A stretch of DNA of 64,000 bases from Schizochytrium sp. TIO01 (Eukaryota; Sar; Bigyra; Thraustochytrida; Thraustochytriidae): assembly GCA_004764695.1 (NCBI GenBank), contig SMSO01000031.1, forward strand, positions 6,505,261-6,569,260. The letters are read 5' to 3'. Below are positions 21,884-61,424 of the stretch, in pieces. The notes beneath the pieces are model-generated. The model saw only the letters and a program-made list of their open reading frames with translations, made no database searches and was not told the origin of the DNA. Position 1 is the first letter of the stretch, and every line of letters begins with the position of its first letter. Position numbers and translations under genes: made by a program.

Positions 21884-21918
21884 CAAACAAACAAACAAAC
21901 AAACAAACAAATAAACAA
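21884..21918. repeat. (AAAC)n run just upstream of the BRWD-like start codon
   Basis: About eight AAAC units, preceded by a short AAC run, ending about 38 bases before the ATG at 21956. Probably transcribed in the 5' leader. Confidence 0.85.
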
Positions 21919-21955
21919 AGCGCAGACAAGCACGAGCTACGAGCGCGCCGCCGCC

Positions 21956-24900
21956 ATGGCCGAGCCCGAGCCCGCCGCCGCTGCGACACAGCCCGAGACA
22001 GCTCCCGGAGCAGAATCAGCTCCCTCCCCCGCCGCCGGCGCCTCTCCGGCGACGCAGCAAGCCGCCGCCATGGATGGCGCTGCCGAGATGGAAAAAGCGG
22101 CAAAGCCGCAGGAGGCAGCAGGGGAAAAACGAGGAGACCATGAACATCAAGACCTGCCCGGCGAAAGCGCCCAAGAACAAGCCCAGGTTGAGGATGCACA
22201 AGAAGGAACAACCTCCGAGGGCGTCGGGAAGACCCTGGGCGCACCTCCAGCCGCGCAGCAGGTCGGAAACGACGGAGAGCTTGGCAGGTGAGAAGAAAGA
22301 AGTGGAAAAGCAGGACCTGAGCCAGACTGACAGTGCTAACGGTGCCGACAAAAACGAAGGCCAAAGCCAGTCTGAGAAGATCGTTGTCGAAGGCGAAATT
22401 GCGGCACAAAAGGACTCTGAAACCGTGGACGATTCCAAGGAAACGCAAGATACTGCTGCTGCTGCTGGGAATGCCACGGTTGGAGATAAGGCCGAGGATG
22501 CTCAGGCCGGCGATGGGGAGACCGCCATCTCTGGGGAGGAGAACGCGGATGGAAAGGAGGCGGAAGTTGTCGGGGAAGCAGGAAAGACTCTAGAGGACTC
22601 AACTATGCCGGTAACCCAGGATGAGGAATCCATGACGCCCGTGGATGATGACGATGACGACGATGATAAAGCCTCGACACACTCAACCGCGCACAATGAA
22701 GCAGAGGAAAGCAGCTCCGCGATAGATACTGAACACAAAGGCACAGAGGAAATTAAGCCAGTCCAGGAGAATGATGCCCCAAGTGCGGCAACAAATGTAG
22801 ATGTGCCCGCAGAAGATGCCTCGAAGGCCAACATTGACAATAATGCAGATGGAGATGTAGAAATGGGTGAGGCAGATATTGCGCAAAGTGAAAGCAAACT
22901 GGCTGAGAGCATTGACCAGGAGGATAATAAGACTGCACCGCAACTTCCTGTCCCAGAAGCAAACTCGCAGCCCTCCCCTTCATTGGTCACTGCTGCTGAT
23001 GCTGCTGCTGATGCTGATGCTGATGCCTCAACCTCAGTGGAGGCGGATGTTAATGTTGATGTGGAAGCACCAGAGACTGATGTTGTTGTCGATACCGCCA
23101 CCAATGTTGAGGAATCATCTGTAGACAAGCCAGCCTCGGCACCTGTGGATCTGCAAGAGCCAAATCAATCCGCATCCTCCTCTGTTCCACCTGCCGAAGT
23201 GCCAAACTCGGCGGAGGAGAAACGTGATCAAACCTCTGAGGAGAAGTCTTCAGAACACGCGCCTGTGGGTACTACGATCAGCGAGCGTGTCCGCGACGAC
23301 CCTAGCGATAGCTTGAAAGCAATATCTTCAGAAGCACAAGCAGAAACGCAGGAAATTCAAGATGAAGACGTTGTAATGGGCGACGAATCTGAACAAGTCC
23401 CTGGCGAGGCTCAGAGAGCTGCTGCCCCTGCCAGCAATACACAGACTCAAGAAGACACTAAGATGGCAGATGATGACGTTGCCGTTGATGTATCTGCCGA
23501 GGTGCTTGAGAAGATGGACCAGTCTGAGGAGACAGATAAACCTGAACCTTCTTCGAGTGCCCCTGTCACGGTTTTTCAGCACACCAGCGAGATGGATCAA
23601 TCTGAGGAAGATGCACTCTTGAACGAGGGAGGTGTAGCTCCTGAAACCAAAGCAGACCATGCCACGGAGGATGAAGAGGATTTACTAAATGAGGCCAAAC
23701 ATTCAACCCAACTTCAAGACAGCCAGGCTGACCAAGTTGTTCAGGAGACCCCTGTCCAAGAGGCAACCTCTGACCACAGTGGAGATGAACGCAAGGTTGC
23801 AGAGGTGAAGGAGAAGTTTATATCACCAGAAGAGAGTGCACCTGCTGAGGAGGCTCAATCCACGGAACAGACAACACCAAAGGCTGACACTGCTATGGAA
23901 GATGTTGAGGCTAACAAAATTTCTGCAGAGCCTATTCAAACCGCAGAGGCAACTAATGCCAGCGAAGAAAAGATGGCGTCTAATTCCAAACTAGAAGGAA
24001 ACGAGTCTGCTGGTGCCAACCAGGAGACTTCATTGGATAACAAACCTGATGTTCCTTCTATCGTTGATGTTTCTGCTGGAGAGCAAGCTACAAATGAATT
24101 CCAGGGTGGGGAGCCTAGTGAACCAGCAAAAACTATTGAAAAGTCGCAATTAACATCGGAGCAGACAGCACAAATGGAAGAAGATGAACTTCTTGGCGAT
24201 TTAGACACAAAAGATGTTGCTTCAAATGAAACTGAAAAGAAGGTGTCTGGAAGCGACACTGCTGAGCTGACCAAGGCCGAGGAAGATCAACTTTTAGATG
24301 ACTCCGGCGAAACTTCAGTCCCTGTTCCAGAGTCTAGTGTCGAGCAAACTGTAGAGGCCAAGGTAAGTCAGCATGTCCCTATCAAGGACTCTGCCAAAGT
24401 TGATCTTGAAGAAGTAAATATCGCCGATACCAGCAAGACAGATACAACAGCTGATTATAAGACAAACCTGGAAACTGGTAATATTGATACCGCAAACAAT
24501 GCCGATGAAGAAGCAAACGTATTGAGTAACGATAGCAAGGTGCCTCAAGTTGGACTTGAGAACCAAGCCCATAGAACTGAAGACGCTGTGATGGAAGACG
24601 GGGTTAGCGGATCTGCCAGTCAGGATACCGTGACGAACTTAGAGGCCAGCAAACCAGGAAACGATGCTATTGAACACAAGGAGGAGGATGAAGAGATGAA
24701 AGATGGGGAAGAAATCTCAGTAAAGATGGATGAAGCATTATTAGGAGCTGCGCAAGCACAGACCAGTAATACATTGGATTCCACTGCAGTCACCCAAGCT
24801 CCTGATGGCCCTGTCCCAGTTCTGACTACTTCTACTGAAACCCTGAAAGATGTGTCATTGTCCGCTGTAGATACTGAGATGAAGATAGAGGAGACGAATG

Positions 24901-27900
24901 TTATTACGATCACCGACAAACTAGGTCAGGGAGCAGAACTAAAAACTGCGCCTGTAGATTTGCCAAAGGAAATGGCAGAGAAATCTGGTGAGATGGCCAA
25001 ACCGTCATTAACAGCCCCACCAGAGCAACAATCATCTGAAGTTATGAAGAATAATACTGACGATAACCTTAAAGAGCTCACCGATGATCAAGACATGCAT
25101 AACGTAACATTAGCATCTGCTGAGCAGATGGAATCAACCGCACCATCAGGGGCTTCTGTTGAAGCCCAGGTAGAAGTAAAGCAGCAAGATCCTGTTTCAT
25201 CATCCGTGGGCGCTCCCAATTCTAGTCAGAGTGACTTGTCACACTCCAACGCACTCATCGATGCCCTGGCTCCAGCAACTACAGCCACAAAGCTTGAAGG
25301 AGTGAAGGTTGATGCATTCAAGGAGATGTCTGGTTCAGATATTTCAGTTACAACCTCAACAATAGCAAAACCAGTAGATGCACCATCGTCTAGTAGCTTG
25401 GTGAACATCCAACCTCAGCAGGTTCAATCTTCAGAAGCACAATTTTCATCAAATACGAGTTCTAGTGAAGGAAAGGCCGCCTTTGAGGTAGTTGATTCCA
25501 CAACTTCAACATCCGTATCGCAAAACCCCACGGTTAGTAACACAGACTATGTTGCTAATACCACTACTTCAAAGCCATCGTCGACCGTGGAGGTTGGCGT
25601 CTCGGCATCAGAAAATGATAGTGTACCACAATCGGCTGTATCGACTAATGCTCAACCCGTTGCACCTGTAGAAGCGTCTGTGTCTGCCTCCGTGTCTTTA
25701 AATGATACCCCTACTGTCCCCAAGTTGACAACGGGGGAGCAAAACGATGCTTCACTTTTCAACAACGACCATAAATCTGATGTCGACTCTGTCGCTGGCA
25801 TGGACCTTGACTTTGATATCCCTTTTGATGCCTCAGCCAGCCACCATGACGTTGAGGATAATGCATTTGACAGTTTCAAAGCCAACCCCTCAGATAGGCC
25901 ACGGCTTGCTTCGATTGACGTGGTAGCTGTTACTTCGAGTTCCTCTTCTTCTGGAAATCCTTCTGAGAATACAAATACTAAGGTTAGACCTACTGAACCA
26001 GTTGTGACCTCGGCAGCATCATCAACAGCATTACTGACAGCGCCTGCAGAATCCTCAACTACATCAGATATTGCTACCACGGGAGGTAGTTCTACGGCGG
26101 CTCCTGCTGTGTCCTCATTAGATACACCTATTGACCCGGCTGGAAATGATGACATGGATATGGATGAGGTGATTGATAACGATAAGAACACTGATGATGG
26201 CATGTCTTCTTCGGGCCTAGAGGTGGTTCCTCAAAGCGGTTCAAACTCAAATCCTGTAAATCTATTACCAATTGTGCCAAGACGTTGGGAGGACACAGCG
26301 GAGTGCAACCTCATCCTTGAGCATCAAAAATTAAATGAAGAGGAAATGAATAAGGCCCGAATGATCCACTTCATCTCTTCTTATCTTTCTAAAGAACTCG
26401 GATGCTCCGACGCTGTTGAAGCGCTGCACGCAGAGGTTACAAGGAAGAATATCCTTCCTAAAGTGACGAACTGGACTGGTTATACTCGCCCTGGAGAACT
26501 CAATGATCTTACTTTACACTTTGGGAAGCTTGATGGAGTCATGGAAAGTATCACCTCTAGTATTGTAGACTCGATCAAAGTCAGAAACGAAGAGGCTGTC
26601 TCTGAGCAACGCCAACTGATTCTGGATCTGCTTGAAACCCGGGATGCTATTAGATCGCGTGAACGCGAAGCTCATTTTCTTGAGGCCCGTGCGCTCAAGA
26701 ACCCTGCGGACAATTTCGAACATAGGATTGCTCGTAAGCGTGCCGAGGCAAAAGATCTGGAAGGCAAAGCTGCTATCCTGCGTCGTAAGATCGCTTTAGG
26801 ACGCAAGCCTCTACGCGCGTCTTATACAGGCCAGCACAACGAGCCAAAAATGCCTGTGGGTGCACTCTACAGCAAACTGCAATTCCTGAAAAAGACCCAG
26901 GGCCACTATTCTTTTGTGTACTGTATTGGTGTGGATCCTGAAGGTGAGTTTGTTGTCACAGGCTCTGATGATACACTCTTAAAAGTATGGTCTGCACACA
27001 GTGGCCAACTTTTAAAGACTTTGCGAGGCCATTCTCACAATGTCTGTGATGTAGCGATTAAGCGAAGACCTGATGGTGGAGTACTCCTTGCATCCGCTTC
27101 TGATGATCTCTCCATTCGCATTTGGGAGCTCCCTTCTGGTCGTGCACTATGTGTTTTTAAGGGACATACCAAGGGTGTGGAAGCTGTTCGATTCGACATT
27201 CATACTGGTCTATTATACTCTGCAAGCAATGATGGATCGCTCTGTGTGTGGGATACAGATTCAATCTACGAGACTTCGGTTATACGTGGTGAAACTACAA
27301 CCCCCGAGCAGCGCACACCAATCATGCTTCCTCACGTGAACCGTGCTAATGCTCGCCCAAGCGAAGTAAATGTTGTGGCTGTGCACCCGGCGGGTGGATT
27401 TATTGCTACGGGCGCAGAAGATGGTACTGTTCGTGTCTGGTGCGGTCAAAAAAATCCGCATCCAGATGTCCTTGCAAAATGCCAAACAGCTTTAATTTCT
27501 GCTTCTCCTCTTGTCGATGGGGCTTATCGGAATGGCTCAAATCGTCTGGTGAATATAATCCACACCCAGTTGACCAACGTATCTAGCCTCGTATGGTCCA
27601 AGGATGGCTATCGTCTATTAGCAACATCTGCTAAGGAGGGCTTGGTGCGTGTCTGGGAGTGGAAGCACACAACTCAGTTCAGTTCTCTCGACACAGTTGT
27701 CGGGTTTTTGTTCTCGCTTCCTCGTCTCGGATTCACATTGAGCACGCAAACAGAGCCTTCACCGGAGGTAGTAAAAACTTGTATTGAAGTTCCTGATGCA
27801 AATACTGCTAACGGGACGGGTGATACGACGAATACTGCCGAGAGTGGTGCTCGTGATCTTGGGGGGCGGCAACCTAGTGAGGCCTCGGCTAATACTAATG

Positions 27901-30900
27901 CTGCTGGTCGCCGTTCGCCTGCTAACAACCACGCCTCCGCTAAAGCGGCTCGTCGTAACAAACGTCTTCCTGGTCTTGATGCTGTGGCTTGGTCTTGTGA
28001 TGACCGCTGGATTGTGACAGCTCAGACATTGATGCCTTCCAATAGTCGAGATGTTCGAGCGTACTGGGGTCAAGAAATTCGAGTTTGGGATGCTCACAGC
28101 CGAGGAGAGCTTACACATGTACTCCGCAGGCATCGAAGTCAAGTGCTGGCCTTGGTTACTCATCCAACGAACCCACGTTTGGCTATGAGTGCAGGTTGGG
28201 ATGGTTTGGTGCTTCTTTGGGATATCGTCGACGGCTCATTAGTATGTGAGAACCTCGCTGTCCATTCATCTGGAATTACTTTTGTTCTTGACGTTCAATT
28301 TTTGCCGTATGGTCGCACTGGCTCTGATGTTGTCTGCACTGATTCAATGGGACGACTCAACTTTCTTGGTATTGGTGATGGCCGTGAGTATAGGGGAACG
28401 TACCCTATTCAGTTTTTTGCCCGTGATAAGAAACCTCTTGCGTACGATGGTTATGGAAATGCTGTTGATGCCGAAACTCAATGCCCACCTCATCTTATTA
28501 CTTCTCAGCCACTTTGTGACTCGCAGCTTATCCCTTACGAAGAGCAACCAGGTAAGCCAAACCCGGAAGCCCGTATCAGGGCTGTGCAGAATTTGGAGCG
28601 CGTTTCTCGTGAAAAGGAAAATGCGGCTCTGAATGAGGTAAAGGCTATTCTTGAGGAACAGGACCGCGATATTCTTGAGCACGGCCGTCGCTCTGTTAGA
28701 CGCCGTGTTATCACATATAGAGATGACAATGACCCACCTACACAGCCACAACCCCGTGCTCCTGCAGCTCGCAATGCTATTCCTCGTGCCGGAGCTGGTG
28801 GTCGACTTCCTGCCCCATTGATGAACAGTGCTTCGATCGATACCAACGCTGACGGAGATGAAGATGAGGCTTACGAGCTTGGTGACGACGATGATGAAGA
28901 GGAAGAGCGTCGAGCTGCGCGAGAACTCCAGATTACCAGAGGTGAATTACATCTACTGCGTAATGAGAGTCCGTCCAATGCTGACGCGCAGGCAAATGAG
29001 GCACCTCGGACAATTCGTCGTGCCGCTCGCCGCGCTGCTGGTCGTATGCGCCAAGTTCGGGATCTATTGCTGGATGCTAATGGAAATGCGGCTACTACAT
29101 CAGCTTCTTCGTCGTCGTCATCGGGTCTAGCTGTTGGTGCTCCTGGAGGGCAAGGCACTGCCGTTGTTGGGGGATCTGGCGCTTCATCGTCCTCATCAGG
29201 TTTTCAAGACCCTAATGCCCTTGCAAGATCTCGTGTGACAGGCGCCACTTCGTCAAGTAGTTCTACTTTTCCTGATGGGCCTGCTGCGGAAAGTAGTGGT
29301 ATTTCACCTGTTCGTCGCGCGGCTAGCTCAAGCTCAAGTACTAGCTATCGCACAGAAGATGGATCTGGTGATGCAACCGGTGCCTATGGTTCTTCGTTGC
29401 TAACATCTACGGGTTCACGAGGTGGGCTTCCCGCGATGCTCGATCAAGAGTGGTTGCAACGCTCAGCAATGTTTGATCGTAAATGGCTACATGCTAATCA
29501 CCGGATTCCTCAATACGGCGATGTTTTCATATACTGTGCCCAAGCCCACAAGATGGTAACAGAAAGATACCTTGAACTTCGGAAGACGTTGTATGCTTCC
29601 CAGAATAATCATGTGGCCCCACTTTACGCGCCTTGGGAGAGTCTTCTTTATGATCTGCCAAACTGGCCCCTTGTCATGTGCGAATTGTTGAACACCAAAC
29701 CCATTTTCCCATACTCCAAGAAGTCTCTTATTGCGAACGATCAGATCACCATCAGTGAATATCACAAGGCCCTTCCTGCAATTGCTCTTGAACTTAAACT
29801 CAAGATTGTTGCTACGCCGCCAAAGAACTCGAACGGAGCCTTGCCTCGCACAGATTCGTGGGAACCGTGGAGCGATGGCGAATCTTTTGTATTTGATATC
29901 GTTTATTTCCGCCCCGAGCCTAACGACCCTGCAATTTTCCTTTCCAAGGGTGAGTTCAATACATATTTTGTGCAAAGTTTCATTCAGGGTATGCATGTCG
30001 CGGATGCTTCAGGACGCGGTGGTTCTGTGCACGGTTTTCAACCTGCGGATTCAACATCAATGGTATGGCCCTCGCCCTACTTGCGCGGTATTACTGTGTG
30101 CTTCCCAGGCACGGCTGGTGCGCCAGGAGAGACGAAGATATATGCTCCGTGGGAAATCAAACCCACTGCGACTCAGATTCAACCATGGTCTCTCCCTTTT
30201 GGCCATCCTGTGGATCCAAATACTTCTGAACGTGTAGCGGGAACCTTGATGGAGCTCTCTGTTCGAACTGAAGTAGCGCGACCTTTTAAGGAGCCAGTAG
30301 ACGCAAATGTTGTAATTGGTTACCTTTCCTTTATTGCATCTCCCATGGATATGGGCACGTTAGTGGAACTGTTGAAGAAAGGTCACTACCGTAGTGTGCA
30401 TCAGATTTTTGCAGATATTGAGTTGCTTTACCAAAATTGTATTACCTATAACCCGAAGGGAACACCTATTCGTCGACTGGGCAAAAAGTTTCGCCAATTG
30501 GCAAACACAGCAATTTTACACAGCATCTCCGCAGATATGGTGCCGCCTATGTTTGATCGTGAAAAGAATGAGCTGAAAAAATATTCTGAGGGCAAACGTA
30601 TGAAGGGTGCTAAGGCCCGTCCAAAGACCCCAACGTTGACTCCTGCTGCAAAGGACTTCAAAACAGATAAGAAGAAAATGATTCGCATGAAGAGGGCACG
30701 TCAACCAAGCCCTACCCCGATTACTATGACGGGTGCCCGACCGGCAAAAAAACGTGCTGCGGCACAAATTTCGCCTTCTATCCCACTTGGAGCCCCGCAC
30801 CCGTCGTTGAATGCAAGCTCAAGCTCAGGTCAAGCTACATCAGCTCCTGCGTCAACATCTACCTCAGCTCTCGCTCCTTCACGTGCTCCTGCTCCGAAAT

Positions 30901-33807
30901 CTCGCGGTGCTGGCTTTGAAACAAGCCAGATGCAAATGCAAGCTCGCGCGCAAGCACAAGCTCAGGCACAAGCTCAGGCGCAAGCTCAGGCACAAGCTCA
31001 GGCACAAGCTCAGGCACAAGCTCAGGCACAAGCTCAGGCACAAGCTCAGGCGCAAGCTCGGGCACAAGCTCGGGCACAAGCTCAGGCGCAAGCTCAAGCT
31101 CAAGCTCAGGCAGTAGCTGCTGCTCAGGCACAAGCACAACATGCCCAGATGTGGCCAGCTTCTCAGATTCCAGCTGCCTGGCCTTCACAAATGATGGCAT
31201 CTGTGCCTGCTCGTAATGATATGGGTTTTGCCATGTTGCAACAACAACAACAACAACAACAGACGGCTCAACAACAACAACAAAAGCAGGCTACTGTTTC
31301 CGCTGTCCCTCAAGTCTCTGGTCTGCAAAGTGTACCTCAACAGGTACCAAAAACGAAGAGTACGACCAGTACCGGTATCTCTGCTGCTGTTCCCAGTTCT
31401 ATGAGTTCGACCCCATCTGCTACTCCCCCCATACCTGCCGCAACTGCTGGTAAGCAAGCAAAGTCTGCGAAACAGCCTAAGGCTCCTAAGGTCCCGAAGG
31501 CGCCAAAGCAATCAGCCAAGGCACCAAAGCAGCCAAAGGCCCCTAAGGCGCCAAAGGCAACAAAGCAGAACAAGGTTGCAAAGCAGACTCCTTCACCTAT
31601 TCCTCAATCAATTCAGCCCATGCATCTCTTGCAACCGGTCCAACCACTTCCCGTTGAGCCTGGGCAGCTTGTCCAGCCTTCCATTCTGAGCAGTATGCCT
31701 GCTCCTGCGGCAGTTCAGCGTACGGCATCGCAGCAGTCTCGTCGTAGGCAGTCTTCGGAATCGGCATCTTCAAGACCTACAAAGAAAGCCCGCAAGACGC
31801 CTACTAAGGCCCAACAGGCTGCCCAAGCTCAGCAGTCGGCACCTCAGCCTGCATCCTCATACATGTCATTTGGTGCATCAACTCAGCAACAGCCGAAACC
31901 TTTTTCTACTCAGCAACATGGTGTTTACCCCCATCCTCAAATGACCGTGCCTCAGCAGCAGTACATGCAAATGATGCAGCAAAAGAGCGCATCCCGCCAG
32001 TCTTCGGAAGGCCAGCAATCCAATGCATCCGCTGTGCCAGGATATAATGTTCAGACATACCCAGTTCAACCTCAGCCAGCAAAGACTCAAGCAATGCCGG
32101 CAAATGGCTTGTCTCGCCAAGGCAGCACTAGCTCCCAAAAGAGTCGCAGCAGCTATCCCCAACCACAACCGCTTCAGCCTAGTGCATCTAGCTCGGCAGC
32201 CAGCGCCCCTTCCCCTGCACAGCCTTCGTCTGCAGCGACATCTACTACAGCTAAAGCAAAGAAATCTGGTCGAGGAGCAAAGGCTGCGGGCGCAGCTGCC
32301 AAACCTGAGACAACGCGTAAGCCGCGCGCTCCAGCAAAGGCAAAGGCACCTAAAACTCAGAATCGACGCACTGCATCTAGTTCTTCTTCGACGTCATCTA
32401 CAAAGGCAACTCCTGCTAACACTGCGGCGCAGACTTCAGCATCTGAAGCAGCAGTACCATCAACGCAACGCCAGGCACAAGCAAGCACAGACAACGAATT
32501 CCGCTTCTGCAGGCTCGGCAGCGGCGCCCCAATATACTCAACAGCAGCAACAGCCTTATGGGTACTTTCCTCAGCAACCTTACCCTGGTTCTGTACAGTA
32601 TGGCGGTATGATGTCGCACGGCAGTCAAGCTCAATCACAACAGCAGTCGCAGTCCAAACAACCCCAGCAGGCTCAACAGAAGCAACCAGCGCAGGTGCAG
32701 CAACCGAAGCAGCAGCAGCAGCAACCAGCTCAGGCGCAGGCGCAACAGCCCCAGACGGCACAACAGCAACAGCCCCAGGCGGTACAACAGCAACAGCCCC
32801 AGGCGGCACAACAGCAACAACAGGCTCAACCACGCCACCCTCAGGCTGCCCAAATGATGCAAGGGCAGTATCCGATGATGCCAAACGCACAGGGAAATCC
32901 GCAGCAGCAACAAGTTATGATGATGATGATGCAGCAGCAACAGCAGCAGCAACAACAACAACAACAACAACAACCACAGACCTCAAGGCCGGAGGATCAA
33001 CAGCAGCCGCAACAAGCAGCCTTACAACAACGTCAGCAGCAGCAGCAGCAGCAACAACAACAGGCTCAACAACAGCAACAAAGGTTGTACCAGCAGCAAC
33101 AGGCTCAACAACAGCAGGCTCAACAACAGCAATTACAAAGGCTATACCAGCAGCAGCAGCAACAGCATGGCTTCCCCTATCACCAGCAACAATATCATCA
33201 GCAGTATCAGCAGCCGCAGCCCTCGATGCACATGTCGTCAGAATATGCTAACTATGGTGCTATGGGACACCCTCAAGGCCAACAAGTACATCAGCAACAG
33301 CAACATCAGATGATGCATGGATCTGGTAATCAATCTGGTGTTTCTATGGGCTACAACAACCCTCAACATCAGCAGCAACAGCAGCAACAGCAGCAACACT
33401 CGAATGGTCAATGGTACCCTATGGGCATGAGCAGCAGCAGCAGCAGTAGCAGCATGTCTGGAAGTGTTGATGGTGCAGATGCTAGTGAATCGAAGATGCA
33501 ACATGACGGTGGTTCGGCTGGGAAGCGCGCTCGTGCTCCGAAGGCAGCAAAACCCAAGATGAAAGAATCTCCGGTTGTTTACGACGAGGCAAGCAAGATA
33601 TGGTTCTTTGTGAACTCAGAAGGGTCAATGGAGAGCCTTGGCTCTTTCCGCAATGAAAGACAAGCACTCAAAGCTTATAACGAGAGGCAGCAAGAGCGTG
33701 AGATGTTCAATAATCTGTCGTCATTTGATTCCGTCACCCCTGACCTGAAGGACATCAAGGACGATGATATCATTGAGGAGTTCTCTGATGACTTGAACTT
33801 CTTTTAA
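21956..33807 (+). CDS. Giant BRWD/PHIP-like WD40-bromodomain protein with AP2-like tail
   Basis: Proposed exons 21956-22287, 22334-32453 and 32491-33807 give about 3,922 residues, far above the roughly 1,800-2,300 of animal BRWD1/BRWD3/PHIP. Order: acidic Glu/Asp/Ser-rich disordered region (1 to about 1,510); helical segment; WD40 propeller (about 1,640-2,120) with [10 protein letters not shown] and [12 protein letters not shown] repeats; acidic and Ser-rich linkers; BRWD-specific module (about 2,480-2,716) opening [12 protein letters not shown], comparable to the PHIP cryptic Tudor; bromodomain (about 2,765-2,840) with P-M-D-M-G-T-L and Y-N-P-K-G; then Ala/Gln, Lys/Pro and poly-Gln tracts; and an AP2-like segment (about 3,845-3,884). 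A chromatin reader of histone marks is the likely role. Exon boundaries at the two frame changes are inferred. Confidence 0.85.
22288..22333 (+). other. Proposed 46-base intron 1 of the BRWD-like gene
   Basis: The acidic N-terminal frame beginning at 21956 stops at 22289, while the frame that continues for 10 kb is +1 to it. A donor GCAG|GTGAGA and acceptor CTGACAG|TGC bracket 46 bases, whose removal restores the frame (phase 2, giving Ser at the junction). It is short next to other introns here (85-626 bases) and not AT-rich, so a single-base indel is an alternative. Confidence 0.5.
30937..31116 (+). repeat. In-frame 12-base Ala-Gln repeat within the BRWD-like gene
   Basis: About 13 units of CAAGCTCAGGCA (with GCG/GCA and CAG/CGG variants) encode an alternating Gln-Ala tract of roughly 55 residues. 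Synonymous variation between units suggests it is maintained as protein rather than freshly expanded. Confidence 0.85.
32454..32490 (+). other. Proposed 37-base intron 2 (or frameshift) in the BRWD-like gene
   Basis: The long frame becomes Thr/Ala/Ser nonsense after about 32500, while the +1 frame carries the Gln-rich tail and conserved C-terminus. GTACCA at 32454 and GCACAG ending at 32490 bracket 37 bases whose removal joins the frames in phase 0. The size is extreme and the donor weak; acceptors in the following CAG repeats (91 bases or more) or a one-base assembly insertion are alternatives. Confidence 0.4.
32923..33420 (+). repeat. CAG/CAA-rich poly-Gln tracts in the BRWD-like gene
   Basis: Several in-frame runs of CAG/CAA (around 32931-32975, 33031-33082 and 33364-33396) encode poly-Gln with mixed codons. 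ATG and AGC triplet runs are adjacent (about 32917-32931 and 33427-33455). Confidence 0.85.
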
Positions 33808-46679: not shown

Positions 46680-48450
46680 TTATGATGAAGCAGAAGGGGT
46701 GGGTTCTACTTCTGGTGCCTTTTTGGCATTCTTGATGAAAGCACGAATCTTGTCATGGTCCTTCACACCAGCACTAGCCTCAACGCCGCTTGCCACATCT
46801 ACGCACCAAGGCTTGGCAACAGCAACTGCCTCAGCCACATTCTCAGGAGTGAGGCCTCCAGCCATAACAAGCGGCAAGCTGTTACGCTCTGCCAGCTTGC
46901 AAGCAATTCCCCAGTCAAAAGTCTGACCAGTGCCCCCACTTGCACCTCCCTTGATGCTGGTATCAAGCAGAAGGGCTGCAGCAGGACCATCAAGGAGCTT
47001 GGAATCATCAACTGGCAATGTCTTCTCCGAGGCGCTAGCATCGGCGTCAACATGGACAACACGGATGACAGGCAGGGCACATTGAGCCTCAAACTCAGGA
47101 TCTTCAGTGCTATGAAGCTGGATCATATCCACACCAGCCTCGAGAGCAAGTTTATTAACCTCGTCGAGAGGCTGGTTCATAAAAACACCCACAAGCAGAG
47201 GACGGCCTTGTCCACGACAAGCCCTGCTGATGACATCTCCCCACATCTGAAACCAACCCTTCTCAACACGCACACGCTTGCCAGGGCTGCGAAGCTCGCC
47301 TTCATCATCGCTACCATTCGTACGTGCCTTATCACCATTGCTCTTATCTGTGGGTAGTGCCGCACCAGAAGTCGAGCGTGAGAACTCTTCCATAAGTTCC
47401 ACACGCCCATCGCGTTCACGAAAGTCACGAATAGCTTGTACAATTTCCTTCGCCTTTTCCATGGTGACATAGCGGGATGACTTTTCTACAAAGATAAGTC
47501 CAATTAGGTCAGCGCCAGCCTTCGCGGCCGTCAATGCAGCATCGGGGTCATTCATGCCACAGATCTTCACCAGAGGTGCCTGTTCACGTGCAGCAGTCTC
47601 TCTGACGAGGCTTGAAATCATCTCCGTTGGGTTAGGTGCCCGCATGAGGGTTTCTCCCACCAGCAAACCGCTAATGCCTCCATGTTCCTCATACTTGCGT
47701 ACATCCTCGCGTGATTTGATTCCGCTCAAAGCCAAAATCACAGTGTCATCCGCAGCTCCGGCCTCCTTGACCACGCGAGCGATCCGAGGGGTAGTTTCCA
47801 TGTCCACTTTGAAGGTATGAAGGTTGCGATTGTTCACACCAAGCACCTTAGCACCAGCTTTGAGAGCAATCTTTGTCTCCTCCTCGTTGACCACCTCTAC
47901 GAGAGGCTCCATTTTGAGCTCACGGCACCTCTTTCAGAAGTTTGGTCAGCTCTGCCTCGTCTAACACACTCAGCATCAGCAAAACAGTATCAGCGCCGAA
48001 AGCTCTGGCTTCGAGCAATTGATATTCGTCCACTACAAAGTCCTTCCGCAAAACCAAAGTGCGAAATCCGCCGAGTTGGTCGATCTCGTCGATGGCCCTA
48101 CGCACGGAAAGCATGTCGTCGAGGGAGCCCTTGAACCATTTGGGCTCAGTGAGCACTGACACAAGGCCAGCACCAGCTTTGGCGTATTTGATGGCCTGTT
48201 CGGCAGGGTCAAGATCTGTAGCAATGTCACCTTTGCTTGGAGAAGCCCGCTTGAACTCAGCGGCGACGAACATCTCGTGAACAGCGCTGGAGTGCTTCTT
48301 AATAGCCTCGAAAAGGTCCAAAGGCTCACCTAATTCGGCCTCGCGAAGCTTAATAAGCTTTTCAAGCTGAGATGAAGTCACGGCCTTACTGTCGGCGGCG
48401 ACATCCTCGCGGCGCTGGTCAACGATGAGCTCAAGCTTTGACTTGCCCAT
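46680..48450 (-). CDS. trpCF: Bifunctional indole-3-glycerol-phosphate synthase/PRA isomerase, frame broken near 47928
   Basis: Fused TrpC and TrpF catalyse two consecutive tryptophan steps (PRA to CdRP to indole-3-glycerol phosphate). Part 1 (48450 to about 47929) has F-K-R-A-S-P-S-K-G and L-R-K-D-F-V-V-D-E-Y-Q; the stop TGA is at 47920. Part 2 continues in the +1 frame with M-E-P-L-V-E-V, G-V-N-N-R-N-L-H-T-F and L-A-L-S-G-I, then TrpF: V-K-I-C-G-M, L-L-L-D-x-x-x-K-G-G with G-G-T-G-Q-T-F-D-W, A-G-G-L-T-P-E-N-V and V-D-V-A-S-G-V-E. Omitting one base at about 47928 gives uninterrupted family sequence of about 589 residues, so this looks like an assembly insertion or a +1 recoding site, not an intron. 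A polar insertion of about 60 residues lies within TrpF. Confidence 0.9.
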
Positions 48451-57959: not shown

Positions 57960-59282
57960 GCAGAACTCCCCCACTCGGATAACGTTTATGGCATTTCTAG
58001 ACTGCTGTGCTGTCTGCATTTCTATGCACATGTAGGTGCCAAGCATTAAGTAAACTTATTTGCTCTTTCCTTTTCTCAACTGCCAAAACTTTCCTACATC
58101 ATTGTTCTTCCTGAGTATACCTTAAATTCAGGCAGTCTCTAATCCATCTTTGTCTCAGGATAATGAAGTTGATCTACTTGCCATCAGCAATGCGAAAGAT
58201 ACAATCAAACGTCTTGCTACCTGAAAGTGTATTTTATAATTTACCCATGCCAATCATAGTACACTCCGTCTTCCAGACTTAGGACATCTTCGCCCAATCG
58301 AGGGAGGGAGTGCTTGTCAATGATTAGTATATCTGTTAGCCCTCGCAAAAGTCAGAATCAGGTCTTTATGTGGAAATAATAAGCACGGACCATTTCTTCG
58401 CTTCTGCTTCCAAGCCAGCTCGTAAAGCATTATTCTAGCTCCATAGTTCCGACATCTAACGCCCCAGAACCGTAGAATACTTAATGCTTTCCACGGATAA
58501 GCTCAGCTAAGAGGTCCTAGGAGTTTTGCTATCACGCATGTTGAAATCAATATGGAAAGTCTTTCAGCAGATCCTCACGGATTGATGCAGAAAGCCTGTT
58601 CGCACCTCGAATTCGCGCGTGAATCGAGTCTCGACCCTTGCAGTACCTGAATGTAGAGAAAACTCGTTGCTGCCTTTGCTGGTCGTCGCAAGTCCCTCGC
58701 AAGCTACGAACTCGACTGAAAGCAGCTGAGAAACCATTGGAAAATGTATAAAGCTAACCTTGATCTAATGTATGATTATTAATTATATACTAGGTAGTAC
58801 GACCATTGCCACCTTCGATCGAGCGAACAAAACCCAAACACGAAATCCAACGAAGCGAGTTCTTTGCGGCGAGCCTTGCTTTGGGCTCCTCGCTTGACGG
58901 TGGCGCTGGATTTACGTCGACGAGAGCTGCAGAGGGGTGCTCTCAGCACCAGGAAAATAGAAGTTCCTCGGACTTGACCAGTACGAACCTACTGACCTAA
59001 GCTAAATTGGAGTACCAGCTGGCAAGGGTTGAGAGCATTTCTGTTTTGGGGAGGCGATACAGCGACTGCTCCGCGCAGACTCGTTTGCAAAAGTTGCAGT
59101 AACTGGTGGAGTTACGGAGTCTTGTTGTAAACTTTCGTTTGTTTGAGTGTTTGTTTATATATTGTGGAAACTGGGCTTTCTGAAACTCTGAGATCTGCTA
59201 CGTATTGATAACAGCGGATTGTAAACAGGAAAAGTCTAGAGGACTTTAACTATTGAGAGCAGTTGCGTCAGAATAGTGCATA
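57960..59282. other. Spacer and upstream region of the SPX-Frag1/DRAM gene
   Basis: About 1.3 kb. AT-rich at left, GC-richer near 58560-58990 where a 64-codon frame (58806-59000) lacks recognisable features. No supported gene. Confidence 0.5.
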
Positions 59283-61424
59283 ATGAAGTTTGGCAAGCGC
59301 CTCGAAGATGATCTCGCAGAACCGCGCTGGGAAGAACATTATGTGCGTTACCGGGTCTTGAAGAAGATGATCAAGGTCCTCTCATTGCTGGGCAAAGATG
59401 CGAATGAGCAACTACTTGAGGAAACCCTGATGCTTTTTCCCCGCAAGAAGAAGAAGAAGTTGCTCCGCGGATTGCGGGACACTGAGGTGAATTGCACGGT
59501 GTGCAAACGGTGGAACCTTTTCTCCTCCATTCTGCTCGAGGACGTTGCACACGTGCGTGGTTTTCTGAGCTCCACTGTGCACGGTTTGCAAGTATCTTTC
59601 TATAACAACATCCACCCTCAAGTAGCAGCGCTGCTCAACGACATCCGTATGGGCGGAGAACCCCGTCTTTATCCTGGCAGTAAAGAAACAATTTTGCTCG
59701 CAAGGTTTGCCGTCTTCCTGGATACATTAGAGGCACTGCGGCGTTTTGTTGTGGTCAACGACATGGCCATGGTTAAGGTTATCAAAAAGTTTAAGAAACG
59801 CGTCCTATCCTCAGTGGATGTTGATGCACCTGCTTGCTGCGAACAGTGTGCTAAGCATATGCTCAAACGTCGCGCTTTCTCTTTGGAACACCTCCTGAAG
59901 TCCTCGATGGGAAGTAGCGATGTGGAGCCTGATGAGGAAGCTGATCTGTACAGCAGCAGTGATGACGAAGCTATGGGACGTCTCAAGACCCAGAGTGCTC
60001 CGAGTTCAAAGGTTGAAGGTTTTGCTGATACTCAGATTCCTCAGGAGGGTTGCATTAAGACGGCGGCTTCAGAAGTAGTTCTTTCACAGAAACCCTTTTT
60101 ACGAAAATTAGAGAACGAATGCAGCTCGGAGTGTGACACTATTGCTAAGCTCGAGGCTGCAGCAGAAACTCTTTTGTCTCGCACAATGGTGTCAAGCAGT
60201 GTATATCATGATTTCATTGTAGATCAACAGACTCAGTTGCAGGGGCAACGGCAGCAGGAGAAGCTTGCCCGCGTAGAAGCTCGTGCAAAGATGCTCACCC
60301 GTCTTACTCGCCACATCGATATGGAAAACCAAGTGCGCCCTGCAACGTTTCTACTTGTGGGAGTGATCCTGCCTCTCCTAACTCTTGTTGCTACATACTA
60401 CGTTTCAAGCACCATTTATATTGATGAAAACAAGAGTATGACCATCTTCGATGAGAAGGGTTTTTTCATTAGCGCAAGTCTAGATGTTGCTCCGGCATCT
60501 AACATTGGCACGTTAGGTCTAACCACTACTTTGATGATGCTGTCGGTAATTATCTTTGTCAAACATAAGCTTGTGAAAAAGCAACTTCGAGGTCGCCAGT
60601 GGATGCGCACACATCGTATTGCCACGGCCTTTGGCATGATGTCTCTCTTTTGTGGCAATGGTGTGGCGGCCTTTCAACATAATGCCAATGCCACCGCCCA
60701 CAATACCTTTGCTGCACTTTTTTTTGTATTTGGCATGATTCATGTCGTCCTTGAGACTATGTTGGACCTGATGTTTAGTTTGTCAATGCCATTCACGCGC
60801 AAAGCTCGAGTGACCATCGCTATTGTATTGATTATCTCCGTTCTAGGGTTTCTTGGACCAATGTCCTATGTTTTAGTTCACGAGCCTCCTCCGGATGTTT
60901 TGCGGTACTACAAGCACGTTGCGGCATGCTTCGAAATCACTGCCTTCGCCTGCTTTGTTCTTTGGTTCGGTAGCTATTACTCGATAATGAAGGCCAGTCA
61001 GTTCAAATTGCACGTAGTGCACCGTGTGCGCCTCGACAGCTCAGAAGACCTTACGAACTTGCGTTTCTCGCACCACATTCACCGTCGTCAAAATTCAATG
61101 GACTCTCTAGAGTCTTTTGACTCGGACCTTGGTTCTGCGGAGGATAATAGCCCTAAAATGCTCTCTTTCGAAGATGCTGTTGCAGAACAAGAGGCGCGTG
61201 CGCATGCTTCCAGTATTGATGCGTCCTATGTATCCGATGATGACGATGACGACGATGACGACGACGATGATGAAAACGACGAGGACACAGCTGCTGGCAA
61301 CCGTTTCTTTAAGCGTCAGAGGAGTATTGTACATGTGGAGAGCAATCCACGGATGGGCCTTGATCTTGATGATATTGCGTTTCACGAGGCTCGTCAAAAT
61401 TCTGGCAAACTGAAAGCCATGTAA
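59283..61424 (+). CDS. SPX domain fused to Frag1/DRAM/Sfk1-type membrane domain
   Basis: A 713-residue single-exon protein. Residues 1-200 are an SPX domain: M-K-F-G-K-R-L start, P-R-W-E-E-H-Y-V-R-Y, and a lysine-rich helix (K-V-I-K-K-F-K-K-R, about 164-173) matching the inositol-pyrophosphate-binding surface. An acidic/Ser linker and coiled helix (about 270-340) follow. Six hydrophobic segments lie at about 353-373, 406-427, 444-466, 473-495, 510-530 and 546-568. They show Frag1/DRAM/Sfk1 features: a loop ending P-A-S-N-I-G, then H-R-I-A-T-A-F-G, V-A-A-F-Q and A-H-N-T-F-A-A-L-F-F-V-F-G-M. The tail is acidic with an Asp run (about 652-667). SPX proteins sense phosphate status; DRAM proteins act at lysosomes and Sfk1 at the plasma membrane. 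Phosphate- or inositol-phosphate-gated membrane function is inference. Confidence 0.88.
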   Translation: MKFGKRLEDDLAEPRWEEHYVRYRVLKKMIKVLSLLGKDANEQLLEETLMLFPRKKKKKLLRGLRDTEVNCTVCKRWNLFSSILLEDVAHVRGFLSSTVHGLQVSFYNNIHPQVAALLNDIRMGGEPRLYPGSKETILLARFAVFLDTLEALRRFVVVNDMAMVKVIKKFKKRVLSSVDVDAPACCEQCAKHMLKRRAFSLEHLLKSSMGSSDVEPDEEADLYSSSDDEAMGRLKTQSAPSSKVEGFADTQIPQEGCIKTAASEVVLSQKPFLRKLENECSSECDTIAKLEAAAETLLSRTMVSSSVYHDFIVDQQTQLQGQRQQEKLARVEARAKMLTRLTRHIDMENQVRPATFLLVGVILPLLTLVATYYVSSTIYIDENKSMTIFDEKGFFISASLDVAPASNIGTLGLTTTLMMLSVIIFVKHKLVKKQLRGRQWMRTHRIATAFGMMSLFCGNGVAAFQHNANATAHNTFAALFFVFGMIHVVLETMLDLMFSLSMPFTRKARVTIAIVLIISVLGFLGPMSYVLVHEPPPDVLRYYKHVAACFEITAFACFVLWFGSYYSIMKASQFKLHVVHRVRLDSSEDLTNLRFSHHIHRRQNSMDSLESFDSDLGSAEDNSPKMLSFEDAVAEQEARAHASSIDASYVSDDDDDDDDDDDDENDEDTAAGNRFFKRQRSIVHVESNPRMGLDLDDIAFHEARQNSGKLKAM

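What the first reader, a model, noticed from the sequence alone, without database searches (positions are those of the whole stretch)
59283..61424. SPX domain fused to a Frag1/DRAM/Sfk1 membrane domain
SPX proteins are known in a limited set of architectures (SPX alone, with EXS, MFS, RING, VTC, GDPD or SLC13-type partners). Here an N-terminal SPX with its lysine helix is followed by six TM segments carrying the Frag1/DRAM hallmarks (V-A-A-F-Q, the A-H-x-x-x-A-A-x-x-F-x-F-G-M segment, the P-A-S-N-I-G loop). This would couple inositol-pyrophosphate/phosphate sensing to a family tied to autophagy, PI4P or GPI biology. I know of no described SPX-DRAM class; that is from memory, not a search.
Basis: partly seen in the sequence, partly recalled or inferred. 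Interest (0 to 1): 0.75.

Follow-up and report, generated by a model that had tools for sequence, protein, structure and literature searches.

The report
Phosphate-sensor domain fused to membrane domain
One intact gene in a single-celled eukaryote joins a phosphate-status sensor (SPX) to a membrane domain of the DRAM/Sfk1 family; the pairing is real and little noticed, though a 2012 table had already listed it in a choanoflagellate.

Summary
One uninterrupted frame (59277-61424, ATG 59283, 713 aa) scores over Pfam's cut-offs for SPX (36.8 bits, cut-off 27.8) and for Frag1/DRAM/Sfk1 (65.5, cut-off 30.3; 5-214 of 220 positions). Frame 0 has the best codon score in 17 of 17 windows, linker included, so it reads as one gene. 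Ligand-site residues Y23, K27, K165, K168, K169 are invariant in 7 of 7 aligned SPX sequences (this gene and six paralogues); the SPX model matches solved SPX domains. It is the only Frag1 match found in the 64-Mb genome, a probable thraustochytrid.

So the architecture is not unique; in the searches made here I found no paper that describes or tests it.

Most likely an inositol-pyrophosphate-controlled membrane regulator of lipid or vacuole/autophagy state. That function is inferred; searches for EFR3, PI4K and GPI partners found nothing, without a positive control.

The parts
59283..61424 (+). Whole SPX-Frag1 gene, one open frame, 713 aa plus stop
   Evidence: Open frame 59277-61424; translation; frame 0 best codon score in 17 of 17 windows
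59283..59807 (+). SPX domain, first block (residues 1-175): N-terminal MKFG hairpin with Y23/K27, then long core helices
   Evidence: PF03105 over cut-off; model pLDDT 69-91 per ten-residue block over residues 1-180; structural matches to XPR1, VTC4, GDE1 and rice SPX1 SPX domains
59757..59801 (+). Lysine helix (residues 159-173): N159, K165, K168, K169, K171, K172
   Evidence: N159, K165, K168, K169 invariant in 7 of 7 aligned SPX sequences of this genome
59910..60050 (+). Low-confidence, Ser/acidic-rich insertion (residues 210-256) after the first SPX block
   Evidence: pLDDT 31-39 per block over residues 201-260
60051..60326 (+). Two long helices (about residues 257-301 and 305-348): the first aligns with the end of solved SPX domains, the second leads into TM1
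   Evidence: Model helices H257-301 and H305-348; alignments to isolated SPX domains such as 8tyu, 5ijp and 5ijj end at residues 302-304 of the model
60348..60980 (+). Frag1/DRAM/Sfk1 membrane domain (residues 356-566)
   Evidence: PF10277 65.5 bits, profile 5-214 of 220; hydropathy
61026..61421 (+). C-terminal tail (residues 582-713), predicted cytosolic, mostly disordered, with an Asp run
   Evidence: Sequence; pLDDT under 50 except about residues 628-639 and 708

Best explanation
A genuine single-gene SPX-Frag1 protein. Shown here: one continuous coding frame; an N-terminal SPX domain with the ligand-site residues kept; a full-length Frag1/DRAM/Sfk1 profile match; and, in the same genome, members of kinase families that include the makers of inositol pyrophosphates. 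Inferred: SPX, linker and C-tail face the cytosol. SPX binds inositol pyrophosphates when phosphate is plentiful. Through the long helical linker, binding changes what the membrane domain does, most likely stimulus-dependent phospholipid or phosphoinositide control of the Sfk1/TMEM150 type or a vacuole/endolysosome (DRAM-type) role. It would work as other SPX membrane proteins do, with SPX as the phosphate-status switch, but with a lipid/autophagy-type effector in place of a transporter or polymerase. Likelihood as I judge it: fusion real 0.95; SPX a working inositol-pyrophosphate sensor 0.8; lipid/autophagy-type regulator rather than transporter 0.45.
Against: No direct functional evidence. 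The TM half modelled poorly (pLDDT 31-73 per block over 351-570) and no solved structure matched it. EFR3_ARM, PI4K_N and Per1 profiles found nothing in the genome (no control rang). In yeast, Sfk1 was not required for the heat-induced PI4P signal tested (PMC7071650 passages). Most SPX membrane proteins that I know of are transporters or polymerases (recalled), which favours a transport rival. No relative was found in the viral or prokaryotic collections, so conservation of the fusion could not be measured.
Confidence: 0.45

Rival explanations
1. SPX-gated transporter or channel: the membrane domain itself moves phosphate or another anion, and SPX gates it as in XPR1, Pho90/91 and SPX-MFS proteins.
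For: SPX joined to a membrane domain is often a transporter (recalled); this genome has SPX-EXS and SPX-like-MFS genes. Ten of the listed whole-chain alignments to XPR1-type structures run on into the TM half, but at rmsd 8-28.
Against: The TM half matches Frag1/DRAM/Sfk1, and no EXS, MFS or other transporter family is listed. I know of no demonstrated transport by that family (recalled).
Confidence: 0.25
2. The Frag1 half is a PGAP2-like GPI-lipid remodelling factor brought under phosphate control.
For: FRAG1/PGAP2 belongs to PF10277 (recalled; PMC5651094 was seen only as a listing and abstract start), and this is the only Frag1 match found in the genome.
Against: The Per1/PGAP3 profile found nothing in the genome, without a positive control. 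Subfamily within PF10277 could not be tested: no reference members were available.
Confidence: 0.12
3. Two neighbouring genes run together by an assembly or prediction artefact.
For: No transcript data were available; internal in-frame ATGs exist (for example M302, M337).
Against: Single frame without stop; the linker scores as coding in the same frame; five of the six SPX paralogues in L016-L021 also hold their SPX start and the rest in one long frame (the frame of L019 lacks the N-terminal MKFG part); same pairing listed independently in Monosiga.
Confidence: 0.03
4. SPX is a passive targeting or dimerisation module and the protein does not respond to inositol pyrophosphates.
For: SPX domains also contact each other, as in VTC (PMC10167327 title and passage).
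Against: Ligand-site residues are kept; in VTC the contact is itself controlled by inositol pyrophosphates (same paper's title).
Confidence: 0.12

Closest known systems
Monosiga brevicollis XP_001747358.1 and XP_001746889.1, listed as 'Frag1+SPX' (PMC3407069 Table 9)
   Same: Same two domains listed in one protein
   Different: Choanoflagellate, not the probable thraustochytrid here; sequences not available here, so domain order, homology and linker were not compared
SPX-EXS (XPR1/PHO1/SYG1) phosphate exporters
   Same: N-terminal cytosolic SPX with the same lysine helix, followed by a membrane domain; SPX folds match
   Different: Membrane domain is EXS; none listed here. The genome has its own SPX-EXS gene at C35 (L016)
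Frag1/DRAM/Sfk1 family (PF10277): DRAM1-5/TMEM150, Sfk1, PGAP2
   Same: Full-length profile match of the TM half
   Different: The members named here are, as I recall them, not SPX fusions; which subfamily this one belongs to was not testable
Other SPX fusions: SPX-MFS, SPX-VTC(-DUF202), SPX-CitMHS, SPX-RING
   Same: SPX as the regulatory module
   Different: Different partner; an SPX-VTC-DUF202 frame and an SPX-like-MFS frame exist elsewhere in this genome

Membership tests
SPX domain (PF03105) | Profile match over the curated cut-off | tested here: met
   36.8 bits against 27.8
SPX domain (PF03105) | N-terminal Tyr/Lys and helix-4 lysines of the ligand site | tested here: met
   Y23, K27, K165, K168, K169 invariant in 7 of 7 aligned sequences, this gene included
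SPX domain (PF03105) | SPX helical-bundle fold | tested here: met
SPX domain (PF03105) | Binding of inositol pyrophosphates | not testable with these tools
   Needs a binding assay
Frag1/DRAM/Sfk1 (PF10277) | Profile match over the curated cut-off across the domain | tested here: met
   65.5 bits against 30.3, positions 5-214 of 220
Frag1/DRAM/Sfk1 (PF10277) | Six-helix transmembrane bundle | tested here: inconclusive
   Five segments over the hydropathy threshold; six helices in a low-confidence model
Sfk1/TMEM150, DRAM or PGAP2 subfamily | Placement in a family tree and characteristic function | not tested
   No reference members in the collections on hand
SPX-EXS, SPX-MFS, SPX-VTC classes | EXS, MFS or VTC domain after SPX | tested here: not met
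   None among the four families listed at E up to 10
SPX-Frag1 architecture of Monosiga brevicollis | Both domains in one protein | tested here: met
   Both over cut-off; Monosiga entries read from Table 9 passages only
SPX-Frag1 architecture of Monosiga brevicollis | Common descent of the fusion | not testable with these tools
   Monosiga sequences not held

The most novel reading that the evidence does not exclude
SPX-Frag1 is an ancient, overlooked class of SPX membrane protein, present before stramenopiles and choanoflagellates parted, in which inositol pyrophosphates directly switch a lipid/autophagy regulator. It would link cellular phosphate status to phosphoinositide supply, from which the inositol pyrophosphates themselves are made: a feedback loop in one polypeptide.
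Probability: 0.2. Interest if true: 0.72.

Novelty: new variant of a known kind. Interest (0 to 1): 0.42.

Why it matters
The well-described SPX membrane proteins are phosphate transporters or polyphosphate polymerases. An SPX sensor on a DRAM/Sfk1-type domain would put phosphoinositide, plasma-membrane lipid or autophagy control directly under inositol pyrophosphates, and would give the poorly understood Frag1/DRAM/Sfk1 family a ligand-controlled member whose activity can be switched in a test. Its listing in a choanoflagellate and its presence in a probable thraustochytrid, two distant eukaryote groups, make a proper family survey worthwhile.

Tried and rejected
Relatives: scans of viral contigs with the whole protein and the TM half, and of genome contigs with the TM half and the whole protein, gave 0 confirmed relatives each. 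These collections hold viruses and prokaryotes, so this says nothing about other eukaryotes. A scan with the SPX alignment could not be made.

A second Frag1 in the genome: none even at E up to 10, with 3 candidates scored; that search does not follow introns, so a split copy could be missed. Is L020 (SPX plus a hydrophobic half of no Pfam family) a diverged second copy? Its SPX half is the closest to the window's among the three of seven other SPX genes that I compared pairwise (L020 score 116 against shuffled 32, 0 of 500; L021 71, 0 of 500; L016 57, 1 of 500). The TM halves are not above chance: L020 44 against shuffled 35, 68 of 1000 shuffles reach it; controls L021 152 of 1000 and L016 202 of 1000. 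blastp of the two TM halves gives E 0.10 with a 59-column stretch at 29% identity, and single-sequence hhalign 2.4% probability. Left open.

PI4K reading: PF00454 gives 17 matches. I looked at one of the 17 (2241-aa frame, L025) as a possible PI4KIIIalpha; it is a PI3K instead. The other 16 were not examined.

Solved structures for the TM half: phmmer of the whole protein found none; Foldseek and the VIA second look returned SPX matches and generic helical bundles. The TM half was modelled too poorly for the fold searches to mean anything.

Literature: SPX with Frag1, PF10277 or Sfk1 (7 papers); SPX domain with DRAM/Frag1 (swamped by words such as 'dramatic'); SPX domain architecture in protists (6 papers); damage-regulated autophagy (0 papers); choanoflagellate (1 paper, not opened); Pfam/InterPro accessions together (0 papers); thraustochytrid with SPX (2 papers, titles off topic). 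Of what I opened, only PMC3407069 holds the pairing. The library holds open-licence papers only.

Full report
What is there. The frame 59277-61424 on the + strand is open from stop to stop, with its first ATG at 59283, the third codon of the frame, followed by MKFGKRL, a start like that of other SPX proteins. It encodes 713 aa. Pfam-A hmmscan at E up to 10 lists four families: Frag1 PF10277 (65.5 bits, cut-off 30.3, residues 356-566, profile 5-214 of 220), SPX PF03105 (36.8 bits, cut-off 27.8, two stretches), DUF7103 below its cut-off (20.2 bits against 27) and a chance-level DUF3246.

One gene or two. A codon score trained on 10 other frames of this genome (6244 codons, SPX paralogues among them) is highest in frame 0 in 17 of 17 windows along the gene, linker included; one window, 521-580, is slightly negative at -0.4 but still best of the six frames. 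Five of the six SPX paralogues in L016-L021 hold their SPX start and the rest in one long frame too; the frame of L019 lacks the MKFG part and may have an exon upstream. About 1.3 kb separates the gene from the frame upstream and 0.4 kb from the frame downstream. No transcript data were available.

Membrane half. Hydropathy shows five segments over threshold, at 356-374, 408-426, 476-494, 514-532 and 546-564; the model adds a helix at 438-465. The stretch after TM2 holds 8 Lys/Arg in residues 427-445, while the TM1-TM2 loop is rather acidic (sequence), which fits both termini in the cytosol. The model of this half is poor (no alignment depth), so its fold was not verified independently. PF10277 annotates six-helix membrane proteins, with structural similarity to DUF998 clusters in prokaryotes (PMC10584675 passages) and an archaeal pfam06197 family as a remote homologue (PMC5898192 passages).

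Genome context. G000 is 64.06 Mb in 37 contigs. PF10277 matches once, here, even at E up to 10. SPX matches at E up to 0.001 fall in 7 frames (9 matches), with an eighth frame at C24 appearing at E 0.002: SPX-EXS (L016), SPX alone (L017, L019), SPX-VTC-DUF202 (L018), SPX plus a hydrophobic half of no Pfam family with five hydropathy segments and six model helices (L020), SPX plus ten hydropathy segments of no Pfam family (L021), SPX-like plus MFS (L024; SPX 27.0 bits, just under cut-off in hmmscan), and the window gene. Ten acyl-carrier domains lie in one 2172-aa frame on C4; eukaryotic PUFA synthases carry 6-13 in tandem (PMC9702510 passages). From this I infer a thraustochytrid; the record itself is unnamed. 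Kinase families that include the makers of inositol pyrophosphates are present: PPIP5K2_N once, IPK three times in two frames; which IPK members these are was not examined.

Prior record. PMC3407069 (2012, autophagy genes in microalgae), Table 9, lists Monosiga brevicollis XP_001747358.1 and XP_001746889.1 as Frag1+SPX; domains there were assigned with SMART, CDD and PFAM (passages). SPX occurs twice in that paper's text, both in this table. So the architecture was seen before, and in a distant lineage, but in the searches made here I found no paper describing it. Passages on SPX classes list SPX, SPX-EXS, SPX-VTC, SPX-MFS, SPX-RING, SPX-DUF202 and SPX-CitMHS (PMC8233357 and PMC12388464); a 2026 review of plant SPX proteins holds neither 'Frag1' nor 'DRAM' (PMC13153306, term count).

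How it may work. Sfk1 and TMEM150 act in PI4KIIIalpha complex II in stimulus-induced PI4P/PI(4,5)P2 synthesis, although Sfk1 was not required for the heat-induced PI4P signal tested there (PMC7071650 passages); Sfk1 is also implicated in phospholipid asymmetry (PMC9018018 passages). DRAM proteins sit at lysosomes, endosomes or plasma membrane, and DRAM-4/5 are induced by nutrient loss (PMC9544835 passages). The economical reading is an SPX switch acting through a long helical linker on a membrane domain of this kind. Against a strict Sfk1 reading, EFR3_ARM and PI4K_N profiles found nothing, although no control genome rang either. Against a PGAP2 reading, Per1 found nothing, with the same limit. 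A transporter role cannot be excluded.

Verdict. Real, intact and almost undescribed, but not unprecedented. Function is open.

Noticed in passing
L020:3703-5004 (-) (G000 C13): SPX protein with a hydrophobic half of no Pfam family (five hydropathy segments, six model helices); its SPX half is the closest to the window's of the three paralogues compared pairwise. May be a diverged SPX-Frag1 or another SPX class; TM similarity is at chance level.
   Followed up: partly
L021:3473-6070 (-) (G000 C34): SPX protein with ten hydropathy segments and no Pfam transporter match; possibly a diverged MFS.
   Followed up: no
L025:457-7149 (-) (G000 C30): A class I-like PI3-kinase frame with SH3 (3 stretches) and cyclic-nucleotide-binding domains (4 stretches) ahead of a Ras-binding domain: an unusual combination as far as I recall.
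   Followed up: partly
L024:2975-5698 (+) (G000 C24): SPX-like plus MFS frame; SPX score 27.0 bits is just under Pfam's cut-off.
   Followed up: partly
window 21915-33251 (+): Very long open frame (3778 aa); its first 1029 aa match no Pfam family at E up to 0.01; a 12-base tandem repeat lies inside it at 30954-31112.
   Followed up: no
window 46680-47933 (-): Frame with the C-terminal part of indole-3-glycerol phosphate synthase followed by phosphoribosylanthranilate isomerase: a fused tryptophan-pathway enzyme, perhaps with a further exon upstream.
   Followed up: no
G000 C4, about 611495-614707: Ten acyl-carrier domains in one 2172-aa frame, as in thraustochytrid PUFA synthase.
   Followed up: partly
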